Below are positions 1,120 through 23,119 of a stretch of DNA of 64,000 bases, in pieces. The translations under genes and the position numbers were made by a program. Source of the stretch: Actinospica robiniae DSM 44927 (GTDB lineage Bacteria; Actinomycetota; Actinomycetes; Streptomycetales; Catenulisporaceae); contig NZ_KI632511.1 in assembly GCF_000504285.1 (NCBI RefSeq), positions 6,554,154 to 6,618,153 of the forward strand, written 5' to 3'. Under the pieces are notes generated by a model. It worked only from the letters and a program-made list of their open reading frames with translations. It did no database searches and had not been told where the DNA came from. The number at the start of each line of letters is the position of its first letter. The stretch's first letter is position 1.

Positions 1120-1704
1120 ATGGCCCGCCGCGCATCCCGGATCGCCCCCGGCGATATCGAATACGTCCCCACCAGCGCCGCCGAGCAGGTCGCGCACGCC
1201 GACGCTCTGCGCCGACACGGCCAAGATCACCCGGACCATCGCGCCCAGGACTTTGCCGAGGCCGCCGAATACTACGCTTTCGCGGGAGACCACGAGACGG
1301 CCGAGAACCTGTTCCGCGCAGCCCTGGCCGACGGCGGCCGCGTCGCAGGCAGCCTCCATGGCTACTACGCCGACTTCCTCTTCACCCGCGATCGGCCCGA
1401 CGAGGCGCTCGCCCTGATCGAGACCGCGCGCAAAGCGCGCCCCGATGACCCAGACGTGTTCGTCATCATCGGCGAGACCCTCGACGAGCACGGCCACCAC
1501 GAGCAGGCCGCCCGCTGGCTGACCACCGGCCTGGTCCGCTACTACGGCGACCTCGCCGAGATCACCGTAGACGACCTCGAAGACGACCCGGACGGCCAGA
1601 TCATGGCCGCCGACCGCCTACGCGCCCGCCGCAACGCCGAACTCGCCCCCGACCACATCGACAACCTCATCGCAGCAATCATCGAGAACACCGACGAGCT
1701 CTGA
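1120..1704 (+). CDS. Tetratricopeptide-repeat protein, leaderless start
   Basis: Encodes 194 residues. The central part alternates short helices with TPR-like spacing: AAEYYAFAGDHETAENLFRA, then LHGYYADFLFTRDRPDEALA and VFVIIGETLDEHGHHEQAAR. This suggests two to three TPR units in a cytosolic protein-protein interaction scaffold. A GTG/ATG-rich upstream extension is possible, but I chose ATG 1120 because TAGGCT lies just before it, a -10 box at the distance expected for a leaderless actinomycete mRNA. The C-terminus is acidic. There is no signal peptide or membrane segment. The partner and process are unknown, and no neighbour is clearly co-transcribed. Confidence 0.8.
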   Translation: MARRASRIAPGDIEYVPTSAAEQVAHADALRRHGQDHPDHRAQDFAEAAEYYAFAGDHETAENLFRAALADGGRVAGSLHGYYADFLFTRDRPDEALALIETARKARPDDPDVFVIIGETLDEHGHHEQAARWLTTGLVRYYGDLAEITVDDLEDDPDGQIMAADRLRARRNAELAPDHIDNLIAAIIENTDEL

Positions 1705-2346: not shown

Positions 2347-3675
2347 TTAGGCACTCGCTCTCGACGGCCGGTATGTGGAGCCGTCGAGGTCTGCGAGCAG
2401 GTCCTCGATGACGTGCTCTTCCTCGACCCGGACGGCGTGGGTGGAGATCGCTTCGCGCAACTGCGAATCCCATGAGGCGTCGCATGGCGCGCCGGTGTCC
2501 AGCCGGCTGCCGTGGCCGCGCCCGATCGCCTTGAGGTAGTCGTGGTGCGAGAAGCGCCAGGGTGCGGCGTCGATGAGGGCGAAGACGGAATTCGCGATGC
2601 GCAGGCCGCCCCAGTCGAAGTCCCCGTGGTAACGCAGGCACGCGCCGTGCTCGCACAGGGCGCGCAGGAGGGCTCGCGCGGCGACGGAGAGGTGGCCTTC
2701 GACGCAGACCAGCGCCGGGCAGTCCGGCCCCATCCGCTGGGCGGCTGCCTCGAGGACGGCGGGGTTCTCGCAGACGAACACCTCTCCCGCGCCGACACCG
2801 TACACGTCCGAGTCTGCGTCTGCGGCACCTTGGCGGATCTGGCGCAGGGTGAGAGCGAGGGGTTCGCCGTGTTCATGGGCGATCGCGAGGAGCGGTCCGA
2901 GGCTACCCGGGCTGCTTCCGTTGCCGGGTAGGCCGAGAGTGAGGACCCGCGAGGAGAGTTCGTCGAGGCTGACGCCGAGCTCCGCCCATTGTGCGCGGCG
3001 CTGTTCGGCCTTGGGCAGAACGAGCGCCTCGGGGTTGGGTGAGAGTGAGCGGGCCCAGTGCTCGGTGGCGGCGAGGACGAGTCTGCCCAGTGGCTGGTCG
3101 GTGTCCAGCGCGTGAGCGTCTCCGGTGGCGCGGGCGGCGAGGATGGGCAGTGATAGGCCGTCGGACGGGAGGTAGGCGAGGACTGCGGCGGTCTGCTCGG
3201 CGAGCGACCGCGCGGCGGACGGGTCGCCGCCGGCCAGCCGTTTGAGCGTGGCACGCGCGTGGGGCCGCCTCCACCAGCTCTCGAGGTAGGCGTTGGCGCA
3301 GGTAGCTGCCTCCAACGGCTCATTCGCGTACTGCCACGCCTGCGCGTCGGCGAGCGCCTTCGCCCTGTTGTCCGGTACGGGGCCGGTGAGTTCCTCCACT
3401 GCGGCGCGTAGGCCGTCGGGGTGGATGCCCGCGGTGCGCAGGAGGGCGTCGAGTTCCTCCATGCGCACGCTGAGCGAGGTGCCCCGGCTGGGGGCCCGGC
3501 CGAGCAGTGCGTCGATGGCGCGGCGCTGCGCGGGCGTGGCGGAAGCCAGCGTGAGACTGCCGATGAGCGGTCGTCCTTCGGCCGCGCGCTTGCGCACTCG
3601 CTCGATGAACCACGCTGTCTCCGGGGTACCCAGAACGCGGGTGAGGCGTGTTGCGTCCGTATGGTCGGAGGTCAT
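2347..3675 (-). CDS. jetD: Wadjet type I nuclease subunit JetD (TIGR02679 family)
   Basis: Encodes 442 residues, the usual size for type I JetD. The N-terminal half matches the DUF3323-type region and the C-terminal half is a DUF2399 Toprim-like domain. The metal-binding residues are visible: Glu326 in LVCVEGH and the DxD pair Asp352/Asp354 in HGDFDWGGLRIA. In characterised Wadjet systems JetD is the endonuclease that cuts closed circular plasmid DNA after JetABC has extruded it. The start ATG overlaps the jetC stop (ATGA), so it is translationally coupled as the last gene of the operon. No key residue is missing. Downstream lies only an IS remnant. Confidence 0.95.
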   Translation of the reverse strand: MTSDHTDATRLTRVLGTPETAWFIERVRKRAAEGRPLIGSLTLASATPAQRRAIDALLGRAPSRGTSLSVRMEELDALLRTAGIHPDGLRAAVEELTGPVPDNRAKALADAQAWQYANEPLEAATCANAYLESWWRRPHARATLKRLAGGDPSAARSLAEQTAAVLAYLPSDGLSLPILAARATGDAHALDTDQPLGRLVLAATEHWARSLSPNPEALVLPKAEQRRAQWAELGVSLDELSSRVLTLGLPGNGSSPGSLGPLLAIAHEHGEPLALTLRQIRQGAADADSDVYGVGAGEVFVCENPAVLEAAAQRMGPDCPALVCVEGHLSVAARALLRALCEHGACLRYHGDFDWGGLRIANSVFALIDAAPWRFSHHDYLKAIGRGHGSRLDTGAPCDASWDSQLREAISTHAVRVEEEHVIEDLLADLDGSTYRPSRASA

Positions 3676-6600
3676 GAGACAAGGGTCTCCTGCGTGTGGT
3701 TCGGTGCGCCGCCGGCTGAGTCAGGCTCGGCCGCACTGGCGAACGCGCCACCACGCGGTGCGCGGCGGCGTTCGCGCCCGTCCCAGATCCACGGGGTCAC
3801 GAGAACGGCGTCGATGCCTTCGCGGCGCGAGAGCTGGGCGATGGCGATGCCGGGCACGGTCGGGTAGCAGGCCCATTCGCGCTCGCTGGTCATCACGACG
3901 TCGAGGTCGAAGGAGGCGAGCAGGCCCAGGCACTTGGCCCGCGAGTCGTCATCGACTCCTGCGAACGCCTCGTCGAGTGCGATCAGGCGCGGCGCGCTGG
4001 CGCGCCCGGAGGAGTAGTGCGAGGACGCCGCGGCGAACAGCGGGATGGATACCGCGAGGACTCTCTCGCCGCCGGAGGCCGGTCCGGTGGCTGGGCGCCA
4101 CTGGCCGTCCTGGCGGCGCTGGATGGCGAACTCGTGCCAGGCCCGGTAGTCCAAGGCCCGGGAGAGCTGGTCCGCCCACGAGTCGCCGGGGTGCTCCTCG
4201 CGGTCGGCGGCGATGCGCGCCTGAAGGAACTGCCCGACCAGGGCGCGGTCGGCCGGACTCCAGACGTCTGCGGATGTGCGCAGCAGCCTGCCGCGCACCG
4301 CTTCGAGCCCTTCGGGCGCGGCCTTGGCGGGGTTCCACTGGAACCGCAGAAGCATTCCGGTCGAGGTGGGGCGCTGTTCGAGATCCTTGTTCATCTCGAG
4401 CACCTGCTCTTCCGCGGCCGCGATCAGCTCTTGCAGCGCCCCGGCCACTTCGCCGACGAGATGGTTCTCGAGCAGCTCGCGCTCTCTGGCCGTCAGCAGC
4501 CGGCCGCGCTGCTCGACGTCTTCGGTGAGCGAGGCCGCGAGAGCGGGTACGTCCCGTGAGCGGCCTTGGTAGACCACGTCGACGTGCATGAGCCCGGCAT
4601 GCGGGGTCATCCCGACGCTGTGTCCATGGCGTCCGAGCGCGTCGGTCAGGGTCTTGATCTCCTGGGCGACGCGCTGCTGGATCAGTTCCCAGGCGCGCTC
4701 GCCTTCGTCGGTCTCGTCGAGTTCCTGGTTGATGGAACGGGCCAGGGCGACCGCCGGCGTGGGCAGCCACTCCGCATCCGCGGCGGGATGTTCGAGATCG
4801 GGCAGCGCGGTGGCGAGCAACCCGGTACGGGTGAAATCGCGCAGGGCGCGCACCGCCGCATCGCGCTCGTCGACCGCGGCCCCGATCTGCCCGCGCAGCA
4901 GTTCGCGGCGTCCGTCGGCGCGCTCGCGCTCGCGCATCGCCTGGTCATACGTGTCGCGGGTCTCCTCCTCAGCTCGGTCTCGCTCCGCTCCCGCCACCTC
5001 GGCCTCGCGCAGGCGGCGGAAGAGTTCCTCCACACTGGCACCGATGGTTTCTTGGAGCACTCGGCGGCGTTCTTCGGCTCCCGCCGCCTCACGTGCGGCG
5101 CGATCGGCCTCATCCGTCGCGGTGACGAGGACTTCGGCTGCCGCCTGCGCCTCCGTCTGCGCGTCGTGGAGCTCACCGGCTGCCTCGGCCGCGGCCCGCG
5201 AGGCAGGCCAGAACGCTGCGAGCGCCGTGCGGTAGTCGTGTACCGCTTCCCGCACGTCGGCGAGGACGCCGCGCTGCGTCGGCAGTGCCGTGTCCCGTGC
5301 GAACTGCTCCGCCTCGGCCTCGGCGGCTTCGGCGGTCCGCTGGCGTTCGGCCGCGGCGCATTGCGTCTCCCCCGCGCGCTCGATCAAGGTGCGCAGCAGT
5401 TCGTTGCGCACCGTCAGGCGTGAGTGCGCGTCGCGCAGGGCCAGGTCGGAAGGCTGGGCATGCAGATGCTCGGTGAGAGCCCTGACGAGCGATTGTACGT
5501 GCTCGATGTCGCGCGCCGACTCGTCGAGCTCGGCTTGGATCTCCCAGCGCAGGCCTGCGAGTTCGGCCAGTTTGGCGCGGCGGGCCGCCTCGCGCGCGCC
5601 CTCTCCGATGTGGCATGCGGCTTCCTTGCTCCATCGGCCCCGCAGCACACCGAGGCGGTAGTGCCCGTCGACGCCGACCCAGGCGGGGTGATCCGACTCG
5701 TCCACGCCGATACAGGCGAGCAGGTACGTCACCGCTTCGTCGGTCAGCGCTGCGGCCGCCTGGTCGTCACGATCGATCACGGGGCGCAGCAGCCCGGTCA
5801 GACCTCCGTTCGGCGCGGGAGCGGCAGTGGCGGTCACCAGAGTGTCACCGGTTCCGAGGCCGTACAGCGTGCCGTCGGGGCTGAGCCAGGCATCGAGGAT
5901 GCCTGCGGCCTCGAGCGCCGCTTCCAGCCCGGCGCGGTCCGCCTCACTCACATCGGCGGCGAAGTCGACCGCGTGCCAGAACGCCGCGCCCGGTCGGTCC
6001 ACACGGGCCAGCGGATCGCGGGTATGGGACGGTGCGGGAGCCTGGTGGCCGCCCGCCTCGAGCCGCGCGATGTCAGCGGTGATCTGTGCGAGCTGCTCGG
6101 AAGCGGCGGCGCGCCGACGCTCGAGACCGCTCTCCCGCCTGGTCAGCTCGGCCGCAGCCCGCTGACAGGCCTCGCGGGCCGTGGTCGCGGCCGGGTCGGC
6201 GCCGTCGAGCGTCTCAGTCCACAGTTCCAGGCGGGCGAGGAGAGCTTCCGGCTCGGGCCGGCGCGTCGCCGGATGGGCATCGAACCACACGCGGTAGTCC
6301 TCGACCAGCTCCGCGCCGGCTTCGAGGATCAGGGCTTGAGCGGCGGCGGCCCGTTCTTGGCCGGCGACGCGTTCCTCGGCCGCGCGGGAAGCCTCACCTT
6401 TGGCGGCCCTGGCGCGCTCGTGCGCCCGATCGGCCTCGTCGAGCAGGGCTTCGAGGCCGGAGATCGCCTGGGTGCGGCGTGCCACAGCGCGCTCCCCGGC
6501 ACGCTGAGCCTGCGGGTAGGGCGCGGCCTCCCGGTCGGCTTCGATCCGAACGGCGTCGTGGTCGATCCCTGAGCGCCCGGCGGAATCCTGCGCCCTCGCG

Positions 6601-7802
6601 TCGGCGTCCTCGAGAGCCGTGGCGTCACGCTCCCGCCGGATGTGCGCGGCCGCGACCCGGCGATTCCAGTTCTCCCCTTGGATACGAGCACGATCCCGCG
6701 CCGCTGTGCGGTCGGCGGCGACCTCGGCGAGAGTACGCGCGATTCCGCCCGCCTCCTCGAGGCCGCGCGCCGCGTCCATCTCGGGGCTGCGGTTGAGGGC
6801 GTCGTGGGCGGCGGACAGCCGTTCTCGCTCGGAGGCCAGTTCGCCGAGCCGGGACTTCGCCACTGCCAGCCGTTCGGTCGCCGCCTCGAAGGCGGTGTCC
6901 TCGTCACCGAGATCACGGCCGAGGTGCTCGTACTTGCTGTGCGCCAGGCGCAGCACGGCCGCCTGCCGCTTCGCGGCGGTACGCGCGTAGCGGCGGTAGT
7001 GGCGAAGGAAGAGTTCTGCCGCGCGGGCCGTCTCCTGCAGCCCGAGCAGCGCCTCGCGCTCCTCGTCCAGACCGCGGAAAGCCTCGGCGACCTCGGTGAT
7101 CAGCCCCTGGTCGAGCGGCGGCAGGGCCTCGGTGAGCGCCTTGGAAAGCAGCTTCTCGTCAGGCCTCTTGGACAGCTGCGGCTGGCGCAGCTGGATCAGC
7201 AGCCCCACCAGGGCTTCATAGCGTTCTCGGCCGAGGCCGAACATCGCCTCGTCCACAGCACGCCGGTACTCGGTCGCGGTGTCGTAGACCAGGCCGCGGT
7301 CGCCGAGCGCGTCCTTGAGGCGCTCGCGAGTGGACGGGATACGGGTGGCGGACATCAGCGCCAACTCCGGGCCGACGCGGCGGTCGGTGACGAAGAACCA
7401 GTGCCGCGCGATGCCTTTGCCCTTGACCGCCTTGAGACCGCAGCCAACGGTGCAGTACAGCTCCCGGCCGTCCTCGTCGATGCGGCCGAATTCCAGCCAG
7501 GCGTATCCGGTCCGCTCGTCGTGCGGGTGCCTGCCGCCGAGCAGCAGGTTCCACTCCATCCGCTTCGCCCGGTCCCCGTCCGGCTCGACCCGGCTCGGCG
7601 TGAGCTCGCCGTCGAGCAGGAACGGCAGGGTCAGCGCGAGCACCTTCGACTTCCCGGTGCCGTTGTTGCCCCGCAGCAACAACCGTCCGTCGTGGAAGCG
7701 GAACTCCTCGTCGTCGTAGTAGAAGATGTCCACCAGTCCGGTGCGAAGCGGTTGCCAGCGCGGACGGATCGGACGGGGCAGATCAGAGTGCGAAGCGATC
7801 AT
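3672..7802 (-). CDS. jetC: Wadjet type I SMC-like ATPase JetC (TIGR02680 family)
   Basis: Encodes 1376 residues, full length for JetC, the MukB-like motor of Wadjet. Walker A is GNNGTGKS at residues 45-52. The ABC signature SGGE starts at about residue 1243 and Walker B is LIALDEAF at 1273-1280. Between them lie long Ala/Glu/Arg-rich coiled coils, interrupted near the middle by a globular hinge-like segment (around GAAFWHAVDFAADVSEADRA). The family forms an ATP-driven DNA loop extruder with JetA (kleisin) and JetB (KITE). The start overlaps the jetB stop by 4 bp and the stop overlaps the jetD start by 4 bp. All ATPase motifs look intact, so it is probably active. Confidence 0.96.
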   Translation of the reverse strand: MIASHSDLPRPIRPRWQPLRTGLVDIFYYDDEEFRFHDGRLLLRGNNGTGKSKVLALTLPFLLDGELTPSRVEPDGDRAKRMEWNLLLGGRHPHDERTGYAWLEFGRIDEDGRELYCTVGCGLKAVKGKGIARHWFFVTDRRVGPELALMSATRIPSTRERLKDALGDRGLVYDTATEYRRAVDEAMFGLGRERYEALVGLLIQLRQPQLSKRPDEKLLSKALTEALPPLDQGLITEVAEAFRGLDEEREALLGLQETARAAELFLRHYRRYARTAAKRQAAVLRLAHSKYEHLGRDLGDEDTAFEAATERLAVAKSRLGELASERERLSAAHDALNRSPEMDAARGLEEAGGIARTLAEVAADRTAARDRARIQGENWNRRVAAAHIRRERDATALEDADARAQDSAGRSGIDHDAVRIEADREAAPYPQAQRAGERAVARRTQAISGLEALLDEADRAHERARAAKGEASRAAEERVAGQERAAAAQALILEAGAELVEDYRVWFDAHPATRRPEPEALLARLELWTETLDGADPAATTAREACQRAAAELTRRESGLERRRAAASEQLAQITADIARLEAGGHQAPAPSHTRDPLARVDRPGAAFWHAVDFAADVSEADRAGLEAALEAAGILDAWLSPDGTLYGLGTGDTLVTATAAPAPNGGLTGLLRPVIDRDDQAAAALTDEAVTYLLACIGVDESDHPAWVGVDGHYRLGVLRGRWSKEAACHIGEGAREAARRAKLAELAGLRWEIQAELDESARDIEHVQSLVRALTEHLHAQPSDLALRDAHSRLTVRNELLRTLIERAGETQCAAAERQRTAEAAEAEAEQFARDTALPTQRGVLADVREAVHDYRTALAAFWPASRAAAEAAGELHDAQTEAQAAAEVLVTATDEADRAAREAAGAEERRRVLQETIGASVEELFRRLREAEVAGAERDRAEEETRDTYDQAMRERERADGRRELLRGQIGAAVDERDAAVRALRDFTRTGLLATALPDLEHPAADAEWLPTPAVALARSINQELDETDEGERAWELIQQRVAQEIKTLTDALGRHGHSVGMTPHAGLMHVDVVYQGRSRDVPALAASLTEDVEQRGRLLTARERELLENHLVGEVAGALQELIAAAEEQVLEMNKDLEQRPTSTGMLLRFQWNPAKAAPEGLEAVRGRLLRTSADVWSPADRALVGQFLQARIAADREEHPGDSWADQLSRALDYRAWHEFAIQRRQDGQWRPATGPASGGERVLAVSIPLFAAASSHYSSGRASAPRLIALDEAFAGVDDDSRAKCLGLLASFDLDVVMTSEREWACYPTVPGIAIAQLSRREGIDAVLVTPWIWDGRERRRAPRGGAFASAAEPDSAGGAPNHTQETLVS

Positions 7803-9076
7803 CGGGAAGCGTCCTTGCGCATGGTCTTGGAACCGGATCTCACGACGCGCGGTGCGGCCAGGGCGTAGCGGTGGATTGCGGGCTTCGCGGCGAACAGCTC
7901 GCTTTCACCCTCACCTGATACCTCGACGAGGTCCAGTGCGACCAGCCGCCGCAATGCGGCATCCGCCAGATCGCCCGAGGCGGCCGGGTCCGTGGCGGAC
8001 TTGCGCCAGTACTTCCCGTGTTCGCCGGCCAGCGAGCGCACCAGGCGTGCCGCCTCGAGGCGCGCGAGCGGTCGCGCGCTCCCGGCCAGGTGCGCGGCGA
8101 TCAGCAGCGTGACATGCCCCTCGGTGCCCTGTTCCGGCATCCGCACATCGGTCAGCTCGTCCTGCGGATCGACCATCGCCACGCCCTCGGCCCGCAGTTC
8201 GGGCACCAGCCCGGTCAGGGCATGGATACGAGCCGCGATGGCTTGGCGCTGGCGAACCAGATAGTCGCGTTCGTCCTCGTCCAGTTCGGCGTAGTAGACG
8301 ACGGGATCATCGAGCAGGCGCCGCGTGAGCCGATGCCGCAATCCGCGCAACCGAGACTCGTCGGTGTCCGGACGCGGCTCGAACGTGAGCTCGGCCAGGC
8401 GTCGCTCGAAGCCGGCGGCCGAGACGCTCGACGGGCTTCGCGTCGTAGCCAGCAGGCCGGAGAGCAGCTTGCGCTTGACGTCGTAGAGCACGTCGTTCTC
8501 GGCCTGCGCGACGAACCCCTCCTCGTCGCCGTGAACCCGATCGAGCACACCGAACTCCAGCAGCAACCGCACGACGGCGACAAGGTCGGAGCGCTCCTCC
8601 CGGCGCTCCAACCGGAACTCGACACCCGCGTCGGCCAGTGCCGGATCCGCCACGCCCGTGATCACCCCGTCGGCGAGCCGGCCCAAGGTGATCTGGCTGT
8701 CCGCCCGTTCCAGCACCGCGAGCGCCAGGCACAGCAGAACGTAGCGACGGCGGGTGAACGGAGCCTTCGTCTTCGGGGCTACCGCGGGCCTGGTCGCGTC
8801 GTCCAGCCGCGCCGGGGTCTTGAGCAGGCGCGCGCTCTGCACGTCCACGACCAGCCGCCAGCCCGTCTCCGCGGCGAACCACGCCGTCAGTTCCGCAGCA
8901 TACTTGCGTGCCAGGCGGAACTCCTCGCCCCCGGGCCTGAGCAGAGGCCGAGCCAGCAGCGCGCGTGCCGCCGTAGCGCGCTCGGCCTGGGCATCGGCGA
9001 GGAGCGAGGCAGCCCTCGGATCGACATCGGTATCGGCTTCGAGGAGGCCGTCGCCCGTCAGATCGTCGATCGTCAC
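7799..9076 (-). CDS. jetB: Wadjet type I subunit JetB (TIGR02678, DUF2398)
   Basis: Encodes 425 residues from GTG 9076. This start is chosen because it overlaps the jetA stop as GTGA, matching the other junctions of this operon; the frame stays open further upstream, but that part lies inside jetA and reads as Arg-rich shadow sequence. Family features include FRLARKYAAELTAWFAAETGW, APFTRRRYVLLCLALAVLER and DERDYLVRQRQAIAARI. By homology JetB is the MukE-like KITE protein with winged-helix folds that bridges the kleisin JetA and DNA. Its 3' end overlaps the start of jetC by 4 bp (ATGA), implying coupled synthesis in fixed stoichiometry. Confidence 0.94.
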   Translation of the reverse strand: MTIDDLTGDGLLEADTDVDPRAASLLADAQAERATAARALLARPLLRPGGEEFRLARKYAAELTAWFAAETGWRLVVDVQSARLLKTPARLDDATRPAVAPKTKAPFTRRRYVLLCLALAVLERADSQITLGRLADGVITGVADPALADAGVEFRLERREERSDLVAVVRLLLEFGVLDRVHGDEEGFVAQAENDVLYDVKRKLLSGLLATTRSPSSVSAAGFERRLAELTFEPRPDTDESRLRGLRHRLTRRLLDDPVVYYAELDEDERDYLVRQRQAIAARIHALTGLVPELRAEGVAMVDPQDELTDVRMPEQGTEGHVTLLIAAHLAGSARPLARLEAARLVRSLAGEHGKYWRKSATDPAASGDLADAALRRLVALDLVEVSGEGESELFAAKPAIHRYALAAPRVVRSGSKTMRKDASR

Positions 9077-10707
9077 CGGACACCTCCGGCGCGGGCCAGG
9101 TCCACGATCTCGATGATGTGCTCTGGCCCCGACAGAACCCCGTCCTGCGTCGGGATCTCGACGATCGTCGAGGCGTCCACGAGCTTCAGGCGCACCTCCA
9201 TGGTGCCGTCTCCGGTGGTGGCCGAGCACTCCGCCTCACCGGGTATCCGCGCCGCCAGAGCGTCCCCGAGCACGGCCAGGAACAGCCGAAACGCCTGCCG
9301 ATCCAGCCCTTCCGGCCCGCCGAGCTCGGACAACAGCGTCGGCCCGTCGGTGGCCAGCCGCGACCTGGCCGAGGCCGTCTGCGCCGCCTCGGCCTCGGCC
9401 TGCTCGGCCAGCAAGACCCGCGCCGCGGACCGGTCCGCGACCTTGTTCGGGGAGCCGCGCCGCTCATACGAGCCGGTCTCCCGCAACCGAGGGCTGATCA
9501 GCAACGGCGGCGCCTGCTCCCACGGCGTGCCCGGCGAAGGCGGCTGCTGCGACCACAGTTCCTCCGTCTCCGCGTCCACGCTCAGATGCCGCGCCGGGGT
9601 GAGCGCGAACGCGGCCCGCCACAGCCGATGGGCGTCCTCGTCGGAGGGGGCCTCGGCGAAGAATCGCGCCAATGCGCGGAAATCCGCGGACCGGTCCACC
9701 CGCCCGCCGCGACGCTCGTTGAGCGCCGAGACCGTGTTCACCAGATTCGTGATCGCGCTCACCGCGCTCGCACGCAACAGCTTGGCCTGTGAAGGATGGT
9801 GCGCGTCGCGGGAGACGAACCAGTCCGTCAGGCCCCGCCAACGGTTCTCCCATCCCGCGAGTACGGCAGCGGGCGCGGCCGTGGCCGGAGCAGCTCCCGC
9901 GCCGGAGGCTGCTTCTGCGTCCTGCGCGCCGGACCCTTCACCATCCGGGACCGCGTCGGCGGCTTCGCGCTGCGCGGCGAGGGCGAGCAAGCGCGATACA
10001 CCGGATGAATTCAACTGACCGAGCAGCTCCGCGATCTGCGCCCCGCGGTTGGCGAGATCGGCGATGAACCGCTCGATGTAGCCGATCAGCCGGTCCTTGT
10101 ACGCGATGAACCCGTCCTCATCCCCGTCCTGGAAGTCGATGGTCCGCCGCAGCGAGGCCATGAACGCCTCCGCATTGTCGGCCAGCGAGGTGAACCTGTC
10201 GACGAGCCCGAGCAACGCGAGGTGCGCTTTCGCCGGGTCCGGGTCCGGGTTCAGCGAAAGCACGAGCAGAGCGGCGAGCTGCTCGACGATGTCCTCCAAC
10301 GCCACCGCCTGCAACTGGCCGCGATGGCCCAGTGCCTGCTCGTACGCCACGATCGCCGCCACCGCGGCCTGCCCGTGCCGGGTGAGCTGGTAGAGATAGC
10401 GGGCGCGATGGAAATCCTCGACCGTCGTGACCCGCCCCGTGTCCGCGTCAGCGCGCAGATTGCCCCACGCCTCCAACTGCTCGAGAGCGCCTGAAACCGG
10501 CTCGATCGCGACTGCCGCGATGCCCGCGTCCCGGCGCAGCTCGGCGAGCACGTCCTCCGGCCGCAGATGCACGGTGAACCGCGCCCTCGCCTGGGCGAAG
10601 ACACGCAGCACCTGGCTGTAGAGAGCGGCATTCGGGGTGCTGAGGTAGGCGAACGGCTGTGGCTCAGCTGTTGCGGCCGACGAAAGACGGGATGAGGCGC
10701 GGCTCAT
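9073..10707 (-). CDS. jetA: Wadjet type I kleisin-like subunit JetA (TIGR02677, DUF2397)
   Basis: Encodes 544 residues. The N-terminal PFAYLSTPNAALYSQVLRVF and the ARYLYQLTRHGQAAVAAI segment fit the DUF2397/JetA family, the MukF-like kleisin that closes the JetC ring and nucleates the complex. It is the first gene of jetABCD. The ATG at 10707 is preceded on the minus strand by GGAAG about 10 nt upstream. The 183-bp gap to the gene behind it (10708-10890) presumably holds the operon promoter, but I could not assign a convincing -35/-10 pair. An Ala-rich linker (GAGAAPATAAPAAVLAG) interrupts the middle. Otherwise the family pattern is intact. Confidence 0.94.
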   Translation of the reverse strand: MSRASSRLSSAATAEPQPFAYLSTPNAALYSQVLRVFAQARARFTVHLRPEDVLAELRRDAGIAAVAIEPVSGALEQLEAWGNLRADADTGRVTTVEDFHRARYLYQLTRHGQAAVAAIVAYEQALGHRGQLQAVALEDIVEQLAALLVLSLNPDPDPAKAHLALLGLVDRFTSLADNAEAFMASLRRTIDFQDGDEDGFIAYKDRLIGYIERFIADLANRGAQIAELLGQLNSSGVSRLLALAAQREAADAVPDGEGSGAQDAEAASGAGAAPATAAPAAVLAGWENRWRGLTDWFVSRDAHHPSQAKLLRASAVSAITNLVNTVSALNERRGGRVDRSADFRALARFFAEAPSDEDAHRLWRAAFALTPARHLSVDAETEELWSQQPPSPGTPWEQAPPLLISPRLRETGSYERRGSPNKVADRSAARVLLAEQAEAEAAQTASARSRLATDGPTLLSELGGPEGLDRQAFRLFLAVLGDALAARIPGEAECSATTGDGTMEVRLKLVDASTIVEIPTQDGVLSGPEHIIEIVDLARAGGVR

Positions 10708-10890
10708 ATTGTCACATTCTTCCGTATCGACGCGCCTGGCATGCCGTATTCCGCAGATCGGCGCCGAGGCGCTGTGGAACGGGGCGGGATTCGACCAGCA
10801 CGGGTGTGTCCACGACTCGCAGCCGAGCGGATCAAGCTCGATTCACTTCTCCAGCGCCACAGGCCGGCCCTGAACGTACCTTCCCCCGCG

Positions 10891-12627
10891 CTACGGAAGC
10901 GTCAGGCCGGGTGAGAGCGTCGCGCCGCAGCCGCTGCGGCCGTGGTCCTGTTGCCAGGTCTCGGCCGGCAGGATCGTCGAGGCCGTCAAGGCCCGCGCTT
11001 GGGCGAGTAGCCCGGGGTCGGTCACGTCGGCTGCGCGGACCCAGTTGCCGCTGGCACCGCCGTCGTTGTCGAGCGGGAGGTAGCCGTTGGCGAGCAGCAC
11101 TGATGATCGCAGGCCACTGGTATCGATCCACGAGCCGGCGACGTGGATGAACGTCGGGCGGGCCACGGTGAATACGTAGGTGCGCAGGGCGGCGGGTTTG
11201 CCGTGCTCGTAGTCGTCGGCGATCGCGGGGTCGGTCAGGCCGGCCAGATCGTACACGCGCAGGTCGCTGGTGAGCAGCGTGCCGCCGAGATCGGGAGTCA
11301 GCAGGCTGCCGTCGGTGACCCGCAGTATCCGGGCATACTGGTTGAACGGGGGGCCGTCGATGGCGACGACCTCGCACAGCGGTACGGTCGGATACCTCAG
11401 GAACCGGTGGAACTGCTTGCGATCGGCGAGATACCCGAAGGCGAGCGACAGCGCCAGCGCGCAGGCGATGACTCCGCGCATGCGGATACGCGAGCACTCC
11501 CAGAGCGAGACGACCGAGAGCGCCAGGGCGAAGGAACCGAGGACCCATACGGGCGTGGCGAAGCGGTAGAGCGGCATCCAGTCCGGGATGAGCACCGCGA
11601 AGGCGACGATGGCCAGCCCGAGTGGGACGAGCACCGGAACCAGGGCCCGCCGTTGGCGCTCGCCGAGACCGCAGGCCATGCCGATGCACGCGGTGCACAC
11701 CAGTGCGGCCGGCCAGCCGATGAAGTGCAGCAGGTCCTGCCCGTGATTGAGGTCGAGCACCGTGGGAGTGCTCTGGCTCTTGGCGACGGCGGTGTTCGAG
11801 ACCCATCCGCCGAACTCGGCGTGCCGCCAGAGCAGGAACGCACCGAACGGCACGGCGAACGTGAGACACGAAATGGCGACGGCTTTGACCGACTCCCGCC
11901 ATCGCGTCCGCTCGGTGAGGAAGACCACGGTTACCGGGAAGACGGCGAGATAGATCAGCCCGTCCGGTCGGGTGAGAGCGGCGAGCAGGGCCAGCAGTCC
12001 CGCGCAGCTCGCGGTGCGGCGCGTGGTCAGCGTGCCGGAGGCCGTGGCGCAGACCATGAGGCTGGCCAGCGCGGCGAGCGTGAGCCCGTAGAGCGGGTTC
12101 TCCAGCCCCGAGAAGCACCAGGCGACCAGGGACATGTTGACCGCGAAGAGGCCGCCGACGAGCGCGGTCACGGCCCAGGCCCGCCGGGGCAGCACGGCCC
12201 GTGCCGCGAGGTTGACCGCGACGAGCATCCCGAAGACGCACGCGAGCGCCAGCAGCTTCGGATAAAGCACGACGTCGGCGATGCCGAACCAGGACCCGTG
12301 GTCGAATACCCCGAGCCAGCGCCCGATCACCAGCAGCGCCAGCCAGCTCGGGTCGGAATAACCCTCCACCGGCGTCGCGCCGGGCTGCTGCACGGGCCCG
12401 TGCCCTGTCGCGACACTGCGGGCGTAGGCGAATGTGACCCCGGCGTCGTCGACGATCCAACGGCCGAGCCGGGATGCCTGAAGCGCCACGGCCGCCGTGC
12501 CGGCCAGTACCGCGGCCTTCTCCGGCCAGTTGCGCAGCACCCGGTCGAGCACGGTCCGGCGTGACGGGGACAGGCTCTCGGGCCGCTCGGACGTGTCCGG
12601 GGCGACGGCAGTCTGAGCAGGCACCAT
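10891..12627 (-). CDS. Polytopic GT-C-type membrane glycosyltransferase-like protein (AftB-like)
   Basis: Encodes 578 residues with about ten hydrophobic segments between residues ~35 and 430, followed by a soluble C-terminal domain. The first periplasmic loop carries the acidic motif IVDDAGVTFAYARSVATGHG followed by PVEGYSDPSWLALL. This is the DDA...FRYARN..GHG...EGYT pattern of GT-C enzymes such as mycobacterial AftB, which use polyprenyl-phosphate sugars outside the membrane. The Asp pair is retained. The C-terminal part (residues ~430-578) resembles the extracytoplasmic domain of the same group. It likely decorates a cell-envelope glycan; donor and acceptor are unknown. It lies upstream of jetA on the same strand but with its own spacing, so I see no functional link to Wadjet. 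Confidence 0.75.
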   Translation of the reverse strand: MVPAQTAVAPDTSERPESLSPSRRTVLDRVLRNWPEKAAVLAGTAAVALQASRLGRWIVDDAGVTFAYARSVATGHGPVQQPGATPVEGYSDPSWLALLVIGRWLGVFDHGSWFGIADVVLYPKLLALACVFGMLVAVNLAARAVLPRRAWAVTALVGGLFAVNMSLVAWCFSGLENPLYGLTLAALASLMVCATASGTLTTRRTASCAGLLALLAALTRPDGLIYLAVFPVTVVFLTERTRWRESVKAVAISCLTFAVPFGAFLLWRHAEFGGWVSNTAVAKSQSTPTVLDLNHGQDLLHFIGWPAALVCTACIGMACGLGERQRRALVPVLVPLGLAIVAFAVLIPDWMPLYRFATPVWVLGSFALALSVVSLWECSRIRMRGVIACALALSLAFGYLADRKQFHRFLRYPTVPLCEVVAIDGPPFNQYARILRVTDGSLLTPDLGGTLLTSDLRVYDLAGLTDPAIADDYEHGKPAALRTYVFTVARPTFIHVAGSWIDTSGLRSSVLLANGYLPLDNDGGASGNWVRAADVTDPGLLAQARALTASTILPAETWQQDHGRSGCGATLSPGLTLP

Positions 12628-13256: not shown

Positions 13257-15575
13257 GTGGAGGGCATCTCAGACCGCATCAACGCGGTCTTGGCAAACCG
13301 GCGCATCGTACAGCCGCTCATCGACGCCGAACTGGCCATGTGGGAGCGCATTCAAGACAGTCTGGGCGCCGTGCGCACCGCGCTCGCGGCGGCGCAGTCC
13401 TCCGAGGTGGAGCTGGCCGGGCTGGCCGACTTCGATGTGGACCGTCTCGCCCGACTCGCCGCGGACTCGATCGCCGCGCTGGCGTCGGTGCGGGCGCGGG
13501 TGAGCCGGCGCACCGTCAACATCGGCGTCAGCGGGCAAGCCCGCAACGGCAAGAGCACGCTCTTGCAGGCCTTGTCCGGGCTGGGCAACGAGCAGATTCC
13601 GGCGCGCGGCGGTGGCGCGGTGACGGCGGTGCGCAGCCGGATTCTGCATTCGGCGACGCAGCGCGAGGCGCTGTTGACGATGCACACCGAGGCGTCCTTC
13701 TGCACCGAGGTCTTGGCGCCGTATGCCGCGGCGCTCGGGCTGGAGGGCCGGCTGGACACGCTCGACAGCTTGGCGGGGTTCCGGTACGCCGACCATCTCG
13801 CGGTGATCCGGCAGCGGGAGGACTTCCCGGTGCTCGGCCCGATGCTCAAGCGGGTCCAGGAGATGGCGTCCGCGGTCAGCGGCTTCCGCCCGCTGTTGAC
13901 CGGCGAGACCCGGCGGATAGACCTGGACGAGCTCTACCCCTGGGTCGCCTATCCGCCGGAGAGCACCCCCGACGCGGACCGCCGCTACCTCGCCGTGCGC
14001 GACGCGGTGATCTCCTGCCTCTTCCCGCTCGAGGAGGTGGTGCACTTGGGCCTGATCGATCTGCCGGGGCTCGGTGAGCTGCTGCCCAGCGCGGAGCAGC
14101 GGCATCTGTCCGGCCTGCAGAACGACGTCGACTTCGTGCTCGTGGTCAAGTGGCCCCGCGAGACCAACACCCTGTGGTCGCAGGCGGACGCTCGTTCGCT
14201 GGAGTTGATCGGGCAGGCTCGGGGAGCCGCCGGAGTGCGGGACTTCGCCGCGATCCTGATCAACACCGGCTTGTGCACGTCGGAGAATCTCAAGGCGGTC
14301 GAGGACGATGTCCTGCACCGGCTCAACGACGGCCAGGCGGACTCGGTCTACCGGGTGATCCGGGCGGACGCGGCCGACCGGGAGCAGGTGCGGGTCGACG
14401 TACTCGAAGTGCTGCTCGCCCACCTCGCCGAGGCCCTGCCGCGGATGGATGCCGCCGCGCTGGAGCAGGCTCGCGCGGTGTGCGCCGCGAACGCCGACCT
14501 GGTGCGGGTCGAGGTCGGCACGGCGCTGTCCGTGCTGCGCTCGGTGATCACGGCTACCCCCACCGAACTCCTGGTCGCGCGCGCCGACGGGCTGCGCACG
14601 GATCTGGCCGGGGCGCTGCGGCGGTGGGTTGACGGCTTGGCCGCTCGTGCCGCAGCCGACAGCACGTACGAAGACCACGAGTTCCTCGCCCGAGCCGAAG
14701 AGATCCGCGACGGTATCCGCGATTGGGTCATCGCGGGCTTCGGCGAGGGAGTCGAGAGCTGGGCGAATCGCGCTCTGGACAGGATGAACATCGACGCGAG
14801 CGCCGCTCCGTTCGCCGTGCAGTCGCTCAACTCCGTGCGCGTCGAGATCGCCGAGCAGTTCGCCGGCATCGACACCGTGCTCATGGCCCGGCGGGACGAG
14901 TTCTGGCAGGGGCTGGCGGACGCGCTGGCAAGCCGGCTGGCCCCGCTGCTGCCCGAAGGTGGCACGCCCGGGGAGGCGCTGCAGCGGCTCGCCGACCTGC
15001 TCGGCGACGCCGAGGACCCGTGCCCGACGCTGCGCCGGGCGCTCGAGTTCATCCTGGACGTGCGGCTGGACTACCGGACCCGCACGCTTCCCCGGTTGCG
15101 GCAGTCGCTCTACCCCCTGCAGGCCGAGTCCGCATCGGGTGACGAAGGCGCGCTGGCCCGGCTGCTGCCGGTCGCCCGCACTCAGGCGGGGGCCGAGGAG
15201 CTGCACCGGAGGATGGCGCAGTTGGCCCGGCAGACGGTCCACGATGCCAGCGGCATCCTGGTCGACGAACCCGCCATCATCGCTCAGGTCCTCTTCGCCT
15301 ACGGCGAGCAGTTCGAGGACTCCTTCATCCGCTCGAAGGCGGCCGAGGCGGAGTTCCGCCGGGTCGCGGAGGCCTTCCGCGATCAGCTGTGGAGCCGGCA
15401 GGACAGCACGCCCGGCGGCGGCCTGGCCAACATGCGCATTCAACGCGTGCGCAAGTCGTTGGCCGACGTCAAGGCCGCCCTCGCCTCCGCTCCGACATCG
15501 TCCGCCGCCGTATCCGCCATACCCGCCGTATCCGCCGCATCGACGCCCCGAGCGGGCTGGGAAGGGGGCGCGTGA
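13257..15575 (+). CDS. Dynamin-like GTPase (first gene of six-gene operon)
   Basis: Encodes 772 residues from GTG 13257, chosen because GGGGAGGGG lies just upstream; the frame is open further 5' but that part is unlike protein. The P-loop is GQARNGKST at residues ~93-101, a possible switch I threonine lies in GGGAVTAVRS, and G3 is DLPGLG at ~268-273. The canonical N/TKxD is not obvious (ILINTGLC occupies the region). The remaining ~450 residues are predicted mostly helical, like the stalk and assembly parts of bacterial dynamin-like proteins that remodel or sense membranes. No membrane helix is seen. Its stop shares one base with the next start (TGATG), so the next gene, also a GTPase, is probably coupled. 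Its biochemical function is not established. Confidence 0.8.
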   Translation: MEGISDRINAVLANRRIVQPLIDAELAMWERIQDSLGAVRTALAAAQSSEVELAGLADFDVDRLARLAADSIAALASVRARVSRRTVNIGVSGQARNGKSTLLQALSGLGNEQIPARGGGAVTAVRSRILHSATQREALLTMHTEASFCTEVLAPYAAALGLEGRLDTLDSLAGFRYADHLAVIRQREDFPVLGPMLKRVQEMASAVSGFRPLLTGETRRIDLDELYPWVAYPPESTPDADRRYLAVRDAVISCLFPLEEVVHLGLIDLPGLGELLPSAEQRHLSGLQNDVDFVLVVKWPRETNTLWSQADARSLELIGQARGAAGVRDFAAILINTGLCTSENLKAVEDDVLHRLNDGQADSVYRVIRADAADREQVRVDVLEVLLAHLAEALPRMDAAALEQARAVCAANADLVRVEVGTALSVLRSVITATPTELLVARADGLRTDLAGALRRWVDGLAARAAADSTYEDHEFLARAEEIRDGIRDWVIAGFGEGVESWANRALDRMNIDASAAPFAVQSLNSVRVEIAEQFAGIDTVLMARRDEFWQGLADALASRLAPLLPEGGTPGEALQRLADLLGDAEDPCPTLRRALEFILDVRLDYRTRTLPRLRQSLYPLQAESASGDEGALARLLPVARTQAGAEELHRRMAQLARQTVHDASGILVDEPAIIAQVLFAYGEQFEDSFIRSKAAEAEFRRVAEAFRDQLWSRQDSTPGGGLANMRIQRVRKSLADVKAALASAPTSSAAVSAIPAVSAASTPRAGWEGGA

Positions 15576-16735
15576 TGACGCCCGCGTTCAAAGTCTCGGT
15601 CGTCGGCCCCTCCCGGGTGGGCAAGACCAGCCTGTTGACCGCCGTGTTCGCCGACACCGAGCTCAAACTCGCCGGCACCTCGCTCGAGGTCGTGCTCGAC
15701 GAAGTGACGGAACGACGGGTGAACAAGCACAACAAGGAGCTGCGTTCGGCGATCGAGGCGAAGGAGTTCAGCGCGGCGGCCCTCGCCGGGACGAACACCA
15801 TTGAGAACTACCAGATCGCGCTGCGCTCCGTGGACGATCCGGACCTGGTCGTGCCGTTCGACCTGCAGGACTACCCCGGCGGCTGGCTGGACCCGCAGAA
15901 CCGGGCGGCGAACAACGTCGCCCCGGAGCGCTGGCGCCAGTGTGAGAGCCACATCCGCGGCAGCATCATGCTGCTGATCCCGATCGACGCCGCCGTTCTG
16001 ATGGAGGCCCGGACCCCGTCACAGCGCGCCGCCGCGCTGAACCTGCTCGGCATCGTCGACGTCGAGAAGGTCGTGCGGATGTGGGTGAGGTCCCGCAATC
16101 TGGAAGAGAACTGCGACGAGCCCGCAGTGCTCATGTTCGTTCCGCTCAAGTGCGAGAAGTACTTCGACCCGCACCGCCCGGCGGACTCCGACGCGGCCGC
16201 GCTGACCGCGCGCGTGAAGGAGGCCTACGGCACCGTCACCGAGATCGTGCGGAAGGAAGCCACTCAACGGTCCGTGCGAGTCGTATATAACCCAGTGGAT
16301 ACTTACGGCTGCGTGGAGCTGTACGAGGGGCTCTGGAAGCAGGCCGGTGACGCGGCGGCGGGGCAACTCGATTTCACCGGGTACTACCACTTCCGGGGCA
16401 ACCCGCCGACGGTCCAGGTCCGTGCGGCGGGCGTCGTGATGCAGGAGCTGTGCCGTTGCGTCCTGGCCGGCCAGGAGAACCTGGAGCGGCTGGCTCAGGC
16501 CGCGCATCAGGAGGATCACGACCGGTTGGCGGCCCGCCGCGCCGAGGCGAAGGGGTTCTGGGGAACGATCACGTTCTATATCAGCGGCGAGGCGGGCGAG
16601 AACGCGGCCGGGATGCAGGGCGCGCGTTCTGCCATCGGCACGGCCCAGCGGCGACGTTATCGGATGCACTCGGACATCGCCCGGCTCGCGCAGTTGGCCG
16701 ACGACGCACGCACCCAGGATTGGACGGGGCGATGA
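15575..16735 (+). CDS. Small GTPase-domain protein (possible DO-GTPase type)
   Basis: Encodes 386 residues. It opens at once with a GTPase fold: KVSVVGPSRVGKTSLL (P-loop residues 11-18), then G3 as LQDYPGGW (Asp99-Gly102), and PLKCEKYF near residues 190-197 at the place where a (N/T)KxD base-recognition motif is expected. The C-terminal third is helical and ends with an Arg-rich region. The layout resembles the GTPases that computational studies of conflict systems place beside partner proteins, but I cannot assign a named family with certainty. The start overlaps the dynamin-like gene by one base and the stop overlaps the next gene as ATGA, indicating coupled translation. The pairing of two different GTPases in one operon is notable. 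Confidence 0.75.
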   Translation: MTPAFKVSVVGPSRVGKTSLLTAVFADTELKLAGTSLEVVLDEVTERRVNKHNKELRSAIEAKEFSAAALAGTNTIENYQIALRSVDDPDLVVPFDLQDYPGGWLDPQNRAANNVAPERWRQCESHIRGSIMLLIPIDAAVLMEARTPSQRAAALNLLGIVDVEKVVRMWVRSRNLEENCDEPAVLMFVPLKCEKYFDPHRPADSDAAALTARVKEAYGTVTEIVRKEATQRSVRVVYNPVDTYGCVELYEGLWKQAGDAAAGQLDFTGYYHFRGNPPTVQVRAAGVVMQELCRCVLAGQENLERLAQAAHQEDHDRLAARRAEAKGFWGTITFYISGEAGENAAGMQGARSAIGTAQRRRYRMHSDIARLAQLADDARTQDWTGR

Positions 16736-17544
16736 GGGCTTACGTACAGACGCGAGGCACCGCCCGGCGCATGGACTATGCCTTCCTGGTGCGTCGACCG
16801 AAGGATCAGTGGTGGGACCGGCTGGCCGACGCCAGCGTGATCTTCACCGACGGCCTCGAAGTGGCGGTGAAGGGCGCAGGCGACGGCTGCGAGGTGATGA
16901 TTTGCGGTGTGCCGTCGAAACGGCGGGACGCCGTGGGCACCGCGATCCGCTACACGCTGTTGCTGGAATTGGGCATCGCCGACAGCTCCCTCGCGGCGCC
17001 CTTGGTCCGGTGTGCGCTCGGCGACGCGAGTCGTGCGGATCTGGGAGCCGGCCTGGACGAGTTGTTCGACGCAGAGACGGTCGACCGGATCCTGAGCGCG
17101 CAAACCGCCGGGGATGAGGTTCTGCTCGACCGCGCGGGCGAGGCGGTCGCCGAGATCGTGAACAGAGCGGCGGCGGCGGAGTCGAACACGGCACGCGGTG
17201 GTGTTCCCGGGTCTCCATGGGCGGGCTCGGCGGAGGATGAGACCAGCGTCGACGCCTTCCTCGGCTACGTCGCCGAAGTGGCGCATGGCGGAAAGGGTCT
17301 GGCCTTCACCTCCCACGCGGTACAGAGCCTCGACCGTGCCCGGCAGGTGGCACAGCAGTTCGGGCCGGACCTCGTCCTGCTGGTCGCGGACGCGCCGTTC
17401 GAAGGAATCAAGCCCCTGGGAAAAGCGGAGGGGTCGGCGGACATCGAGAAGCCGGCCCCGATCAGTCGAGTCGGGATCCTGGGCTTGGCGCTCTGTGGCC
17501 TGATAGTGCTGCTGTTGATTATCTGGTGGGTACGTCGGGCCTGA
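16732..17544 (+). CDS. Tail-anchored membrane protein of the GTPase operon
   Basis: Encodes 270 residues. The N-terminal ~90 residues look like an alpha/beta domain (MDYAFLVRRPKDQWWDRLAD, then TDGLEVAVKGAGDGCEVMIC). The middle is acidic and helical. A second small alpha/beta part (around LAFTSHAVQSLDRARQVAQQ and DLVLLVAD) precedes a single hydrophobic segment, residues ~246-267, ending in WWVRRA. With no signal peptide and a C-terminal helix followed by arginines, it should be tail-anchored with its bulk in the cytosol. It may dock the two GTPases at the membrane; this is inference from operon position. Its start overlaps the preceding stop by 4 bp. I do not recognise the family. Confidence 0.75.
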   Translation: MRAYVQTRGTARRMDYAFLVRRPKDQWWDRLADASVIFTDGLEVAVKGAGDGCEVMICGVPSKRRDAVGTAIRYTLLLELGIADSSLAAPLVRCALGDASRADLGAGLDELFDAETVDRILSAQTAGDEVLLDRAGEAVAEIVNRAAAAESNTARGGVPGSPWAGSAEDETSVDAFLGYVAEVAHGGKGLAFTSHAVQSLDRARQVAQQFGPDLVLLVADAPFEGIKPLGKAEGSADIEKPAPISRVGILGLALCGLIVLLLIIWWVRRA

Positions 17545-18110
17545 CCAGCCTTGGCTCGGCCGAGGTCAGGCTGACCGCTCGTGAACGCCACTGGTCCGGC
17601 ACGGTGTATCTCGACCCGCCGCTGCTGTTCGGACGGGTCGTGGCGGACACAGGCGACCAGGAACTCCTCACCGGTTATTACGCCGTGCCGGCGCTGCCGA
17701 GCTGTCGGGCTTCCGGGTACGTCCCCTTGAAGACGCGGGTGCGCTGGCGGCTGGGAGAAAACGAAGTCCAGAAGAGTGTGATGGACACGGCGGCGGTGTG
17801 GCCGTTGATCGAGCAGGCGACGCTCTCCGCGTGGAGACGCCTCAGCGATCTGGACCGGCGCTCGCAGGGCGGCTCGGGGCGCTCGCCATCCGAATGGGCC
17901 GACGCGGCGGCGGCGTACATCGATCTCGGGCGGCTCGATCTGGCGGAGGCGGCCGTGCGAAATCTCGCCCGGGGAACGCTCCTCGAGCGATTCGGCGAGT
18001 TCCGGAACCCGCAGGTCCGCCGTCGCCTGATCGACCACTTCCGCCGGCTCGATTGGCTTGTCAGAGAGGACCCGGCGCTGACGCGAGCACTCGACGTACT
18101 AGGCCGATGA
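17526..18110 (+). CDS. Unknown protein of the GTPase operon (194 aa)
   Basis: GTG 17526 begins inside the last 19 bp of the preceding gene; there is no strong ribosome site, so coupled re-initiation is likely. The N-terminal half is beta-rich (HWSGTVYLDPPLLFGRVVAD, then ASGYVPLKTRVRWRLGENEV). The C-terminal half is helical and TPR-like (AAAAYIDLGRLDLAEAAVRN, then RRRLIDHFRRLDWLV). There is no signal peptide, membrane segment or recognisable catalytic motif. Strand and overlap make it part of the dual-GTPase operon, where it could be an adaptor; that role is a guess. Real-gene status is supported by its non-biased amino-acid composition and tight packing. Confidence 0.65.
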   Translation: MGTSGLTSLGSAEVRLTARERHWSGTVYLDPPLLFGRVVADTGDQELLTGYYAVPALPSCRASGYVPLKTRVRWRLGENEVQKSVMDTAAVWPLIEQATLSAWRRLSDLDRRSQGGSGRSPSEWADAAAAYIDLGRLDLAEAAVRNLARGTLLERFGEFRNPQVRRRLIDHFRRLDWLVREDPALTRALDVLGR

Positions 18111-18200
18111 AGTCGCTTTCAACCCGAGCAGTGGGGGGAGGCGATCCGGGGCCGAGCCCCGTACTCAACGGTTATCGCCTTCGAGAACACGAGGATGCCC

Positions 18201-19646: not shown

Positions 19647-19663
19647 GAGAGAAGAGGGTCACC

Positions 19664-23068: not shown

Positions 23069-23119
23069 CCGATCGTATGATGGTGTCTGCCGCCGTCGAC
23101 GACCAGGGCTGGAGCGCAA

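What the first reader, a model, noticed from the sequence alone, without database searches (positions are those of the whole stretch)
2347..10707. Complete type I Wadjet system with four-base coupling at every junction
JetA, JetB, JetC and JetD are all full length with intact ATPase (GNNGTGKS, SGGE, Walker B) and Toprim (Glu326, Asp352, Asp354) residues. Every start overlaps the previous stop by 4 bp (GTGA, ATGA, ATGA). This is a known anti-plasmid defence, and it anchors the neighbouring unknown operon as a possible defence island.
Basis: partly seen in the sequence, partly recalled or inferred. Interest (0 to 1): 0.5.

Follow-up and report, generated by a model that had tools for sequence, protein, structure and literature searches.

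The report
Intact type II Wadjet anti-plasmid operon
An actinomycete carries a complete, ordinary four-gene system that very probably finds and cuts invading circular plasmids; it belongs to the less-studied type II, not type I as first thought, and one of its active-site residues had been misassigned.

Summary
The four genes, 4-bp overlaps and ATPase motifs are real, but the typing is wrong: DUF2397, DUF2398, TIGR02680 and DUF3323+DUF2399, with PADLOC scores far higher for type II. This is a type II Wadjet. Glu326 is not the Toprim glutamate: it is E in 14 of 87 relatives, while Glu303, Asp352 and Asp354 are in 87 of 87; in the predicted structure Glu303 directly follows the first Toprim strand. 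Four-base overlaps are common here (9 of 33 same-strand pairs). The defence island is unsupported: 20 flanking proteins gave no specific PADLOC match, and the neighbouring GTPase operon does not accompany Wadjet in the other loci examined. Likely function, inferred from other Wadjets: an SMC motor plus nuclease that cuts circular plasmids. Extras: the operon is in 12 of 14 family genomes and under purifying selection; DNA similarity mostly ends at its edges. Its gene tree matches rpoB only in part. A second copy in the genome is broken. Known kind; low interest.

The parts
9073..10707 (-). jetA (type II), 544 aa, predicted kleisin subunit, DUF2397/TIGR02677
   Evidence: PADLOC JetA2 638 bits, no JetA1 hit at E<=0.001; PF09660 E 4.2e-153; TIGR02677 512 bits; phmmer to JetA of 9qe0 E 3.9e-22
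7799..9076 (-). jetB (type II), 425 aa, GTG start overlapping the jetA stop by 4 bp, predicted KITE subunit, DUF2398/TIGR02678
   Evidence: PADLOC JetB2 456 bits, no JetB1 hit at E<=0.001; PF09661; TIGR02678 354 bits; match to JetB of 9qe0 only marginal, E 0.034
3672..7802 (-). jetC (type II), 1376 aa SMC/MukB-like ATPase, TIGR02680, 4-bp overlap with jetB
   Evidence: PADLOC JetC2 1438 bits against 50.2 for JetC1; TIGR02680 1254 bits; phmmer to JetC of 9qe0 E 1.3e-95
2347..3675 (-). jetD (type II), 442 aa, DUF3323 + DUF2399 Toprim nuclease, 4-bp overlap with jetC
   Evidence: PADLOC JetD2 438 bits against 18.7 for JetD1; PF11796 and PF09664; model pLDDT 91.3 matches MksG 8b7f, JetD 7til and topoisomerase VI-A 1d3y
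7647..7670 (-). JetC Walker A, residues 45-52 (GNNGTGKS)
   Evidence: G45, G50, K51, S52 in 88 of 88 relatives, partly circular because of the search pattern
4065..4076 (-). JetC ABC signature, residues 1243-1246 (SGGE)
   Evidence: 88 of 88 relatives
3963..3986 (-). JetC Walker B, residues 1273-1280 (LIALDEAF)
   Evidence: L1276, D1277 and E1278 in 88 of 88 relatives
2767..2769 (-). JetD Glu303, the conserved Toprim glutamate right after strand 298-302
   Evidence: 87 of 87 relatives; position in the model
2698..2700 (-).
   Evidence: E in 14 of 87; lies after strand 322-324
2614..2622 (-). JetD Asp352-x-Asp354, Toprim DxD after strand 346-349
   Evidence: 87 of 87 relatives; model
2416..2424 (-). 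JetD Glu418-420, conserved acidic cluster; candidate counterpart of MksG Glu349/Glu351 (by spacing, inferred)
   Evidence: E in 82, 84 and 84 of the 84 relatives with residues there; 3 of 87 have gaps; MksG residues from PMC10123090

Best explanation
The locus is a complete, probably functional type II Wadjet (JetABCD) operon of an Actinospica-type actinomycete. JetA (kleisin), JetB (KITE) and JetC (SMC ATPase) would form a dimeric motor that loads on DNA without sequence preference and reels it in by ATP hydrolysis. On a closed circle extrusion runs to completion, and the JetD Toprim nuclease (Glu303, Asp352, Asp354, perhaps with the Glu418-420 cluster) then cuts the DNA, which destroys incoming plasmids while the chromosome escapes. 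Shown here: gene content, type, open frames, conservation of active-site residues, predicted JetD fold, purifying selection. Inferred from published work on other Wadjets: loop extrusion, circle sensing and cleavage. Being type II it is expected to have a channel-less hinge and one JetB per JetC2JetA unit, as in the N. vireti complex; this was not tested.
For: Type II models win for all four subunits. JetC and JetA match JetC and JetA chains of 9qe0/9qe1; that these entries are the published N. vireti type II complex is recalled and not confirmed by a call. SGGE and Walker B residues are the same in 88 of 88 JetC relatives, and Glu303, Asp352, Asp354 in 87 of 87 JetD relatives. The JetD model ranks C. 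glutamicum MksG, P. aeruginosa JetD and topoisomerase VI-A first in Foldseek, with Z 14.6, 12.3 and 15.7. dN/dS is 0.15-0.29 in five gene comparisons with two congeners. nvJET, a type II Wadjet, cleaves naked circular DNA and differs from type I in stoichiometry and hinge (PMC12647877, passages). Subunit roles: PMC10586767 (passages). MksG E236A and D279A have drastically impaired nuclease activity (PMC10123090, passages).
Against: No activity was measured. The JetB match to the solved structure is marginal. JetD has no relevant sequence match in the PDB copy, alone or as a profile, and its whole-chain Foldseek TM-scores (query-normalised) are low, about 0.3, with rmsd 9.5-15.5 over the first four rows, so the nuclease assignment rests on family models, the fold and conserved residues. 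In the congener G002 the JetD frame is split, and the genome's own second copy is broken, so loss is tolerated at times. The promoter and terminator scan found no clear signal before jetA or after jetD; such consensus scans suit this kind of genome poorly.
Confidence: 0.93

Rival explanations
1. Type I Wadjet.
For: Same gene order and general architecture; weak cross-hits to JetC1 (50.2 bits) and JetD1 (18.7 bits).
Against: JetA and JetB hit only type II models at E<=0.001; JetC2 1438 and JetD2 438 bits; DUF2397/2398/3323/2399 and TIGR02677-02680 all over their curated cut-offs.
Confidence: 0.02
2. The operon serves mainly chromosome maintenance (a condensin-like housekeeping role) in this family, with plasmid restriction secondary.
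For: Over-cut-off JetC in 12 of 14 genomes of the family against 6 of 45 in another family of the order (Fisher p 1.2e-6 without correction for relatedness); JetA in 12 of 14; the JetA tree matches rpoB for the Actinospica trio; purifying selection.
Against: The nuclease JetD keeps its active site. Wadjet is reported in 42% of Actinobacteria (PMC10482375, passages), common but not universal. G004 and a Streptantibioticus copy break the family pattern, and inside the larger genus JetA and rpoB disagree. Only 14 genomes are held.
Confidence: 0.06
3. A decaying, inactive remnant, like the second copy elsewhere in this genome.
For: The second type II copy (G000:C1 about 4.51 Mb) has JetB in two frames and JetC in two frames with about 180 residues missing.
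Against: The window copy is open throughout with all motifs and low dN/dS.
Confidence: 0.03

Closest known systems
Type II Wadjet of Neobacillus vireti LMG 21834 (nvJET); PDB 9qe0/9qe1 taken to be this complex (recalled, not confirmed by a call)
   Same: JetC E 1.3e-95 and JetA E 3.9e-22 by phmmer; same subunit names in the entries
   Different: JetB match only E 0.034; JetD has no sequence match in the PDB copy. The primary paper is not held; facts come from passages of PMC12647877.
Type I Wadjet (E. coli GF4-3, P. aeruginosa PA14 JetD 7til)
   Same: SMC-kleisin-KITE-Toprim logic (PMC10586767, passages); JetD fold
   Different: JetA and JetB of another family by PADLOC; type I has two JetB per unit and a hinge channel (PMC12647877, passages)
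C. glutamicum MksBEFG (MksG 8b7f)
   Same: JetD model is closest to MksG by Foldseek; metal-binding Glu and Asp with similar spacing (E236-D279 against E303-D352)
   Different: 14% identity; the C. glutamicum control genome matches TIGR02680 only under its cut-off

Membership tests
Wadjet type II | Four genes in the order jetA-jetB-jetC-jetD | tested here: met
Wadjet type II | JetA of DUF2397 / JetA2 | tested here: met
Wadjet type II | JetB of DUF2398 / JetB2 | tested here: met
Wadjet type II | JetC of TIGR02680 / JetC2 with ABC-type ATPase motifs | tested here: met
Wadjet type II | JetD of DUF3323+DUF2399 / JetD2 with Toprim acidic residues | tested here: met
Wadjet type II | Cleavage of circular DNA and reduced plasmid establishment | not testable with these tools
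   needs expression and assay
Wadjet type II | Channel-less JetC hinge, one JetB per JetC dimer | not tested
   no complex or hinge was modelled; expectation from PMC12647877 (passages)
Wadjet type I | JetA and JetB of the type I families (PADLOC JetA1/JetB1) | tested here: not met
   no JetA1 or JetB1 hit at E<=0.001
Defence island | Other known defence genes beside the operon, or recurrent linkage | tested here: not met
   no specific PADLOC match among 20 flanking proteins; neighbours mostly not shared between genomes. Genes from 26452 onward were not scanned, and a 2023 library cannot exclude unknown systems.

The most novel reading that the evidence does not exclude
In this actinomycete family a type II Wadjet has become a near-core operon rather than an accessory defence: it persists as an exact four-gene cassette, with DNA similarity ending about 20-65 bp before jetA and, where the contig shows it, at the jetD end in four of the five genome pairs compared, while the surrounding genes turn over, even between species of one genus. 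That would make plasmid exclusion (or an added chromosomal role) a lineage trait. (Odds lowered from 0.3 in my draft, because on recheck the JetA and rpoB trees disagree inside the larger genus.)
Probability: 0.25. Interest if true: 0.4.

Novelty: new member of a known kind. Interest (0 to 1): 0.2.

Why it matters
It corrects the system type, which matters because a type II complex differs from type I in stoichiometry, hinge and ability to pass obstacles (PMC12647877, passages), and it corrects the catalytic residue: a Glu326 mutant would probably have shown nothing, while Glu303 should matter. An intact operon kept across this group of actinomycetes is also a practical explanation to test for poor plasmid uptake.

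Tried and rejected
Type I assignment: rejected. Glu326 as Toprim Glu: rejected. A linked fifth gene: none found; my called flanking genes are not shared among the 11 family loci of up to 20 kb, except between G008 and G009 and a few hits at 29-46% identity between other pairs. The neighbouring operon as a partner: rejected. Carriage of similar JetC on plasmids or phages: one plasmid record of 72,556 (Cupriavidus, 43% identity over 50% of the query; E<=1e-50) and no phage record of 50,697 (E<=1e-20). Empty-site search with both flanks of the G003 operon: no clean empty site; one flank is mostly absent elsewhere and the other hits many places. A TPR gene beside the window operon also lies on the G001 contig with another Wadjet copy, which looked like a common site, but apart from it only a short JetC stretch matches. 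A search of the family's 14 genomes with one JetC1 model gave matches of at most 51 bits, in 9 of 14 genomes, the best at type II JetC places; not exhaustive for type I. Promoter and terminator scan: uninformative. Rfam: nothing at gathering scores. The first tree is invalid because minus-strand loci were misread; it was redone, where the G013 row is still misread (its locus begins at a contig start) and is disregarded.

Full report
What was checked. The four minus-strand reading frames at 2347-10707 are open and full length, and each gene starts inside the stop of the previous one by 4 bp. Such overlaps are ordinary: among my own gene calls for the window, 9 of 33 same-strand neighbour pairs overlap by exactly 4 bp, 6 of them elsewhere. 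In 89 loci (window, 12 loci from unnamed relatives, and 76 of the 80 named best hits after dropping 4 duplicates) a 4-bp overlap is possible at A/B in 78 of 86, B/C in 81 of 87 and C/D in 53 of 88. The 80 named loci are the best of 479 found.

Type. PADLOC gives JetA2 638, JetB2 456, JetC2 1438 and JetD2 438 bits; type I models appear only as JetC1 50.2 and JetD1 18.7 bits. Pfam gives DUF2397, DUF2398, SbcC_Walker_B, DUF3323 and DUF2399. NCBIfam gives TIGR02677, 02678, 02680 and 02679, all over cut-off. So it is type II. JetC and JetA match chains of 9qe0/9qe1 (JetA also has one chance-like hit at E 0.25); JetB is marginal and ranks below an unrelated chain; JetD has no relevant match. I take 9qe0/9qe1 to be the N. 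vireti type II complex cited in PMC12647877; that link is recalled.

Active site of JetD. Across 87 relatives Glu326 is E in 14, otherwise Q, N, G, S or H. Glu303, Asp352 and Asp354 are in 87 of 87, and Glu418-420 nearly so, 3 rows having gaps there. One of these rows, G002, is only part of a split JetD. The AlphaFold2 model (mean pLDDT 91.3, 30-row alignment) has strand 298-302 followed by Glu303, helix 305-318, strand 322-324 followed by the loop with Glu326, helix 331-342, and strand 346-349 followed by Asp352/354: the Toprim order with the glutamate after the first strand and DxD after the third (this order is recalled). Structure comparison gives MksG, JetD and topoisomerase VI-A first, only the first two at E<=0.001 and with query-normalised TM-scores near 0.3; with VIA-align their Z is 14.6, 12.3 and 15.7 at rmsd 7.5, 11.9 and 5.7. 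In MksG the metal residues are E236 and D279, and E349/E351 are proposed nucleophiles (PMC10123090, passages); the equivalence to Glu303, Asp352 and Glu418-420 is inferred from spacing and conservation.

JetC motifs. The ATPase residues tested (of Walker A, signature and Walker B) are the same in 88 of 88 relatives. For Walker A this is partly circular, since RGNNGTGK was one of the two patterns that found the named loci; for SGGE and Walker B it is not.

Organism and distribution. The window lies in a 9.92-Mb single-contig genome. Over-cut-off JetC is found in 12 of 14 genomes of the family (own included), 6 of 45 of another family of the order (f2; 12 of 45 have some match at E<=0.001) and the one genome of a third family. 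JetA gives 12 of 14 too. Fisher p for 12/14 against 6/45 is 1.2e-6, without correction for relatedness. The two misses are G010 (77% complete) and G012 (90% complete, where rpoB is also missed); rpoB is missed in G013 as well, which has the operon's JetA, JetB and JetC.

Trees. With an rpoB fragment as yardstick, the Actinospica trio has the same branching in both trees and the larger genus (g2) is one clade in both. Against vertical descent: JetA of G004 pairs with an f2 copy (G049), and inside g2 rpoB joins G005 with G007 (starred) while JetA joins G005 with G011 (starred). In the quick 89-row JetC tree the family label needs 3 changes, with G004 among Streptomycetaceae and a Streptantibioticus copy beside Actinospica. 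So descent is partly vertical, with some transfer.

Neighbourhood. DNA similarity between the window and G002 covers 2381-10726 in two pieces; beyond the operon there is only one 518-base match about 20 kb away. With G001 it covers 2381-7756 and 7771-10772 on two contigs. In G003/G006 and G005/G011 it also stops about 45-60 bp before jetA (the G005 contig ends inside JetD, so that side is not seen). G008/G009 are the exception and share more upstream sequence. The second-lineage copies of G006 and G007 share 19 kb at 99%, so shared flanks are seen where genomes carry near-identical copies. Gene 10891-12627 next to jetA occurs in 5 of 13 family relatives, all of g2, on contigs other than those of their window-like Wadjet operons. 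Whether the operon moves or its neighbours are replaced cannot be told; no clean empty site was found.

Defence island. Of twenty flanking proteins scanned with PADLOC (one of them, 1900-2307, a doubtful frame), three had hits: a LuxR-type DNA-binding protein (CARF3, E 3.6e-6), a WD40-like protein (HEAT-ARM_XIII, E 7.1e-7) and an ABC transporter (mad3 E 4.9e-30, mad8 E 3.8e-11). Pfam shows the first and third to be a GerE/LuxR domain and an ABC transporter, and the second to have beta-propeller-like matches below cut-off, so I read all three as shared common domains. No gene of the neighbouring operon 13257-20077 was found in the 11 family relatives' Wadjet loci. Its first gene occurs in 12 of 293 genomes of the order, own included. 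In the 11 other loci its first three genes go together in 8, and no JetA or JetC lies within the 15-20 kb fetched.

Second copy. The same genome has another type II copy near 4.51 Mb: JetA 71% and JetD 53% identical and open, JetB in two frames, JetC in two frames with query residues 564-741 missing. This supports the window copy as the working one, but shows that loss occurs.

Mechanism. From published work, JetABC extrudes DNA and JetD cuts when extrusion is complete; nvJET (type II) cleaves naked circles, has a channel-less hinge and did not pass a tethered obstacle (PMC12647877, passages). Purifying selection makes the window operon likely functional: dN/dS 0.15-0.29 in five comparisons (JetA, JetB, JetC with G002; JetC, JetD with G001; G002 JetD left out as split, G001 JetA and JetB not computed). 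Wadjet is reported in 42% of Actinobacteria against 7% of other bacteria (PMC10482375, passages), so its presence here is ordinary.

Verdict. A new member of a known kind, mis-typed and with one misassigned residue; low interest, with a modest lead in its near-core status in the family.

Noticed in passing
window 13257-20077 (+): Six-gene operon led by a dynamin-like GTPase (772 aa; Dynamin_N E 6.9e-4, under its cut-off), a second P-loop protein (386 aa, by eye) and a 257-aa protein with a C-terminal hydrophobic stretch (by eye). These three travel together in 8 of 11 other loci of the order with varying genes after them; the fifth gene here has an HELVH motif. In layout it resembles the GTPase-centric conflict systems of PMC7159879 (passages), but it has no Pfam family over cut-off and no PADLOC match.
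   Followed up: partly
window 21411-24714 (+): WXG100-like protein, XOO_2897-type deaminase protein, SUKH-4 immunity protein, and a protein with SUKH-4 and deaminase matches: looks like a polymorphic toxin and immunity cluster.
   Followed up: partly
L033 (G000:C1 4505000-4524500): Second type II Wadjet copy in the same genome with broken JetB and JetC but open JetA and JetD.
   Followed up: yes
L036 7834-9196 (G002): JetD of the congener operon is split into two frames; draft assembly, so error or real damage cannot be told.
   Followed up: no
window 1120-1704 (+): TPR gene beside jetD has two copies (84% and 83% identical, the second partial) on the G001 contig that carries a different, distant type II Wadjet.
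   Followed up: partly
L034 8249-11403 (upstream of the window): ABC transporter and a protein with a sub-cut-off RimK-like ATP-grasp match (19.4 bits, cut-off 21) side by side on one strand; function not pursued.
   Followed up: no
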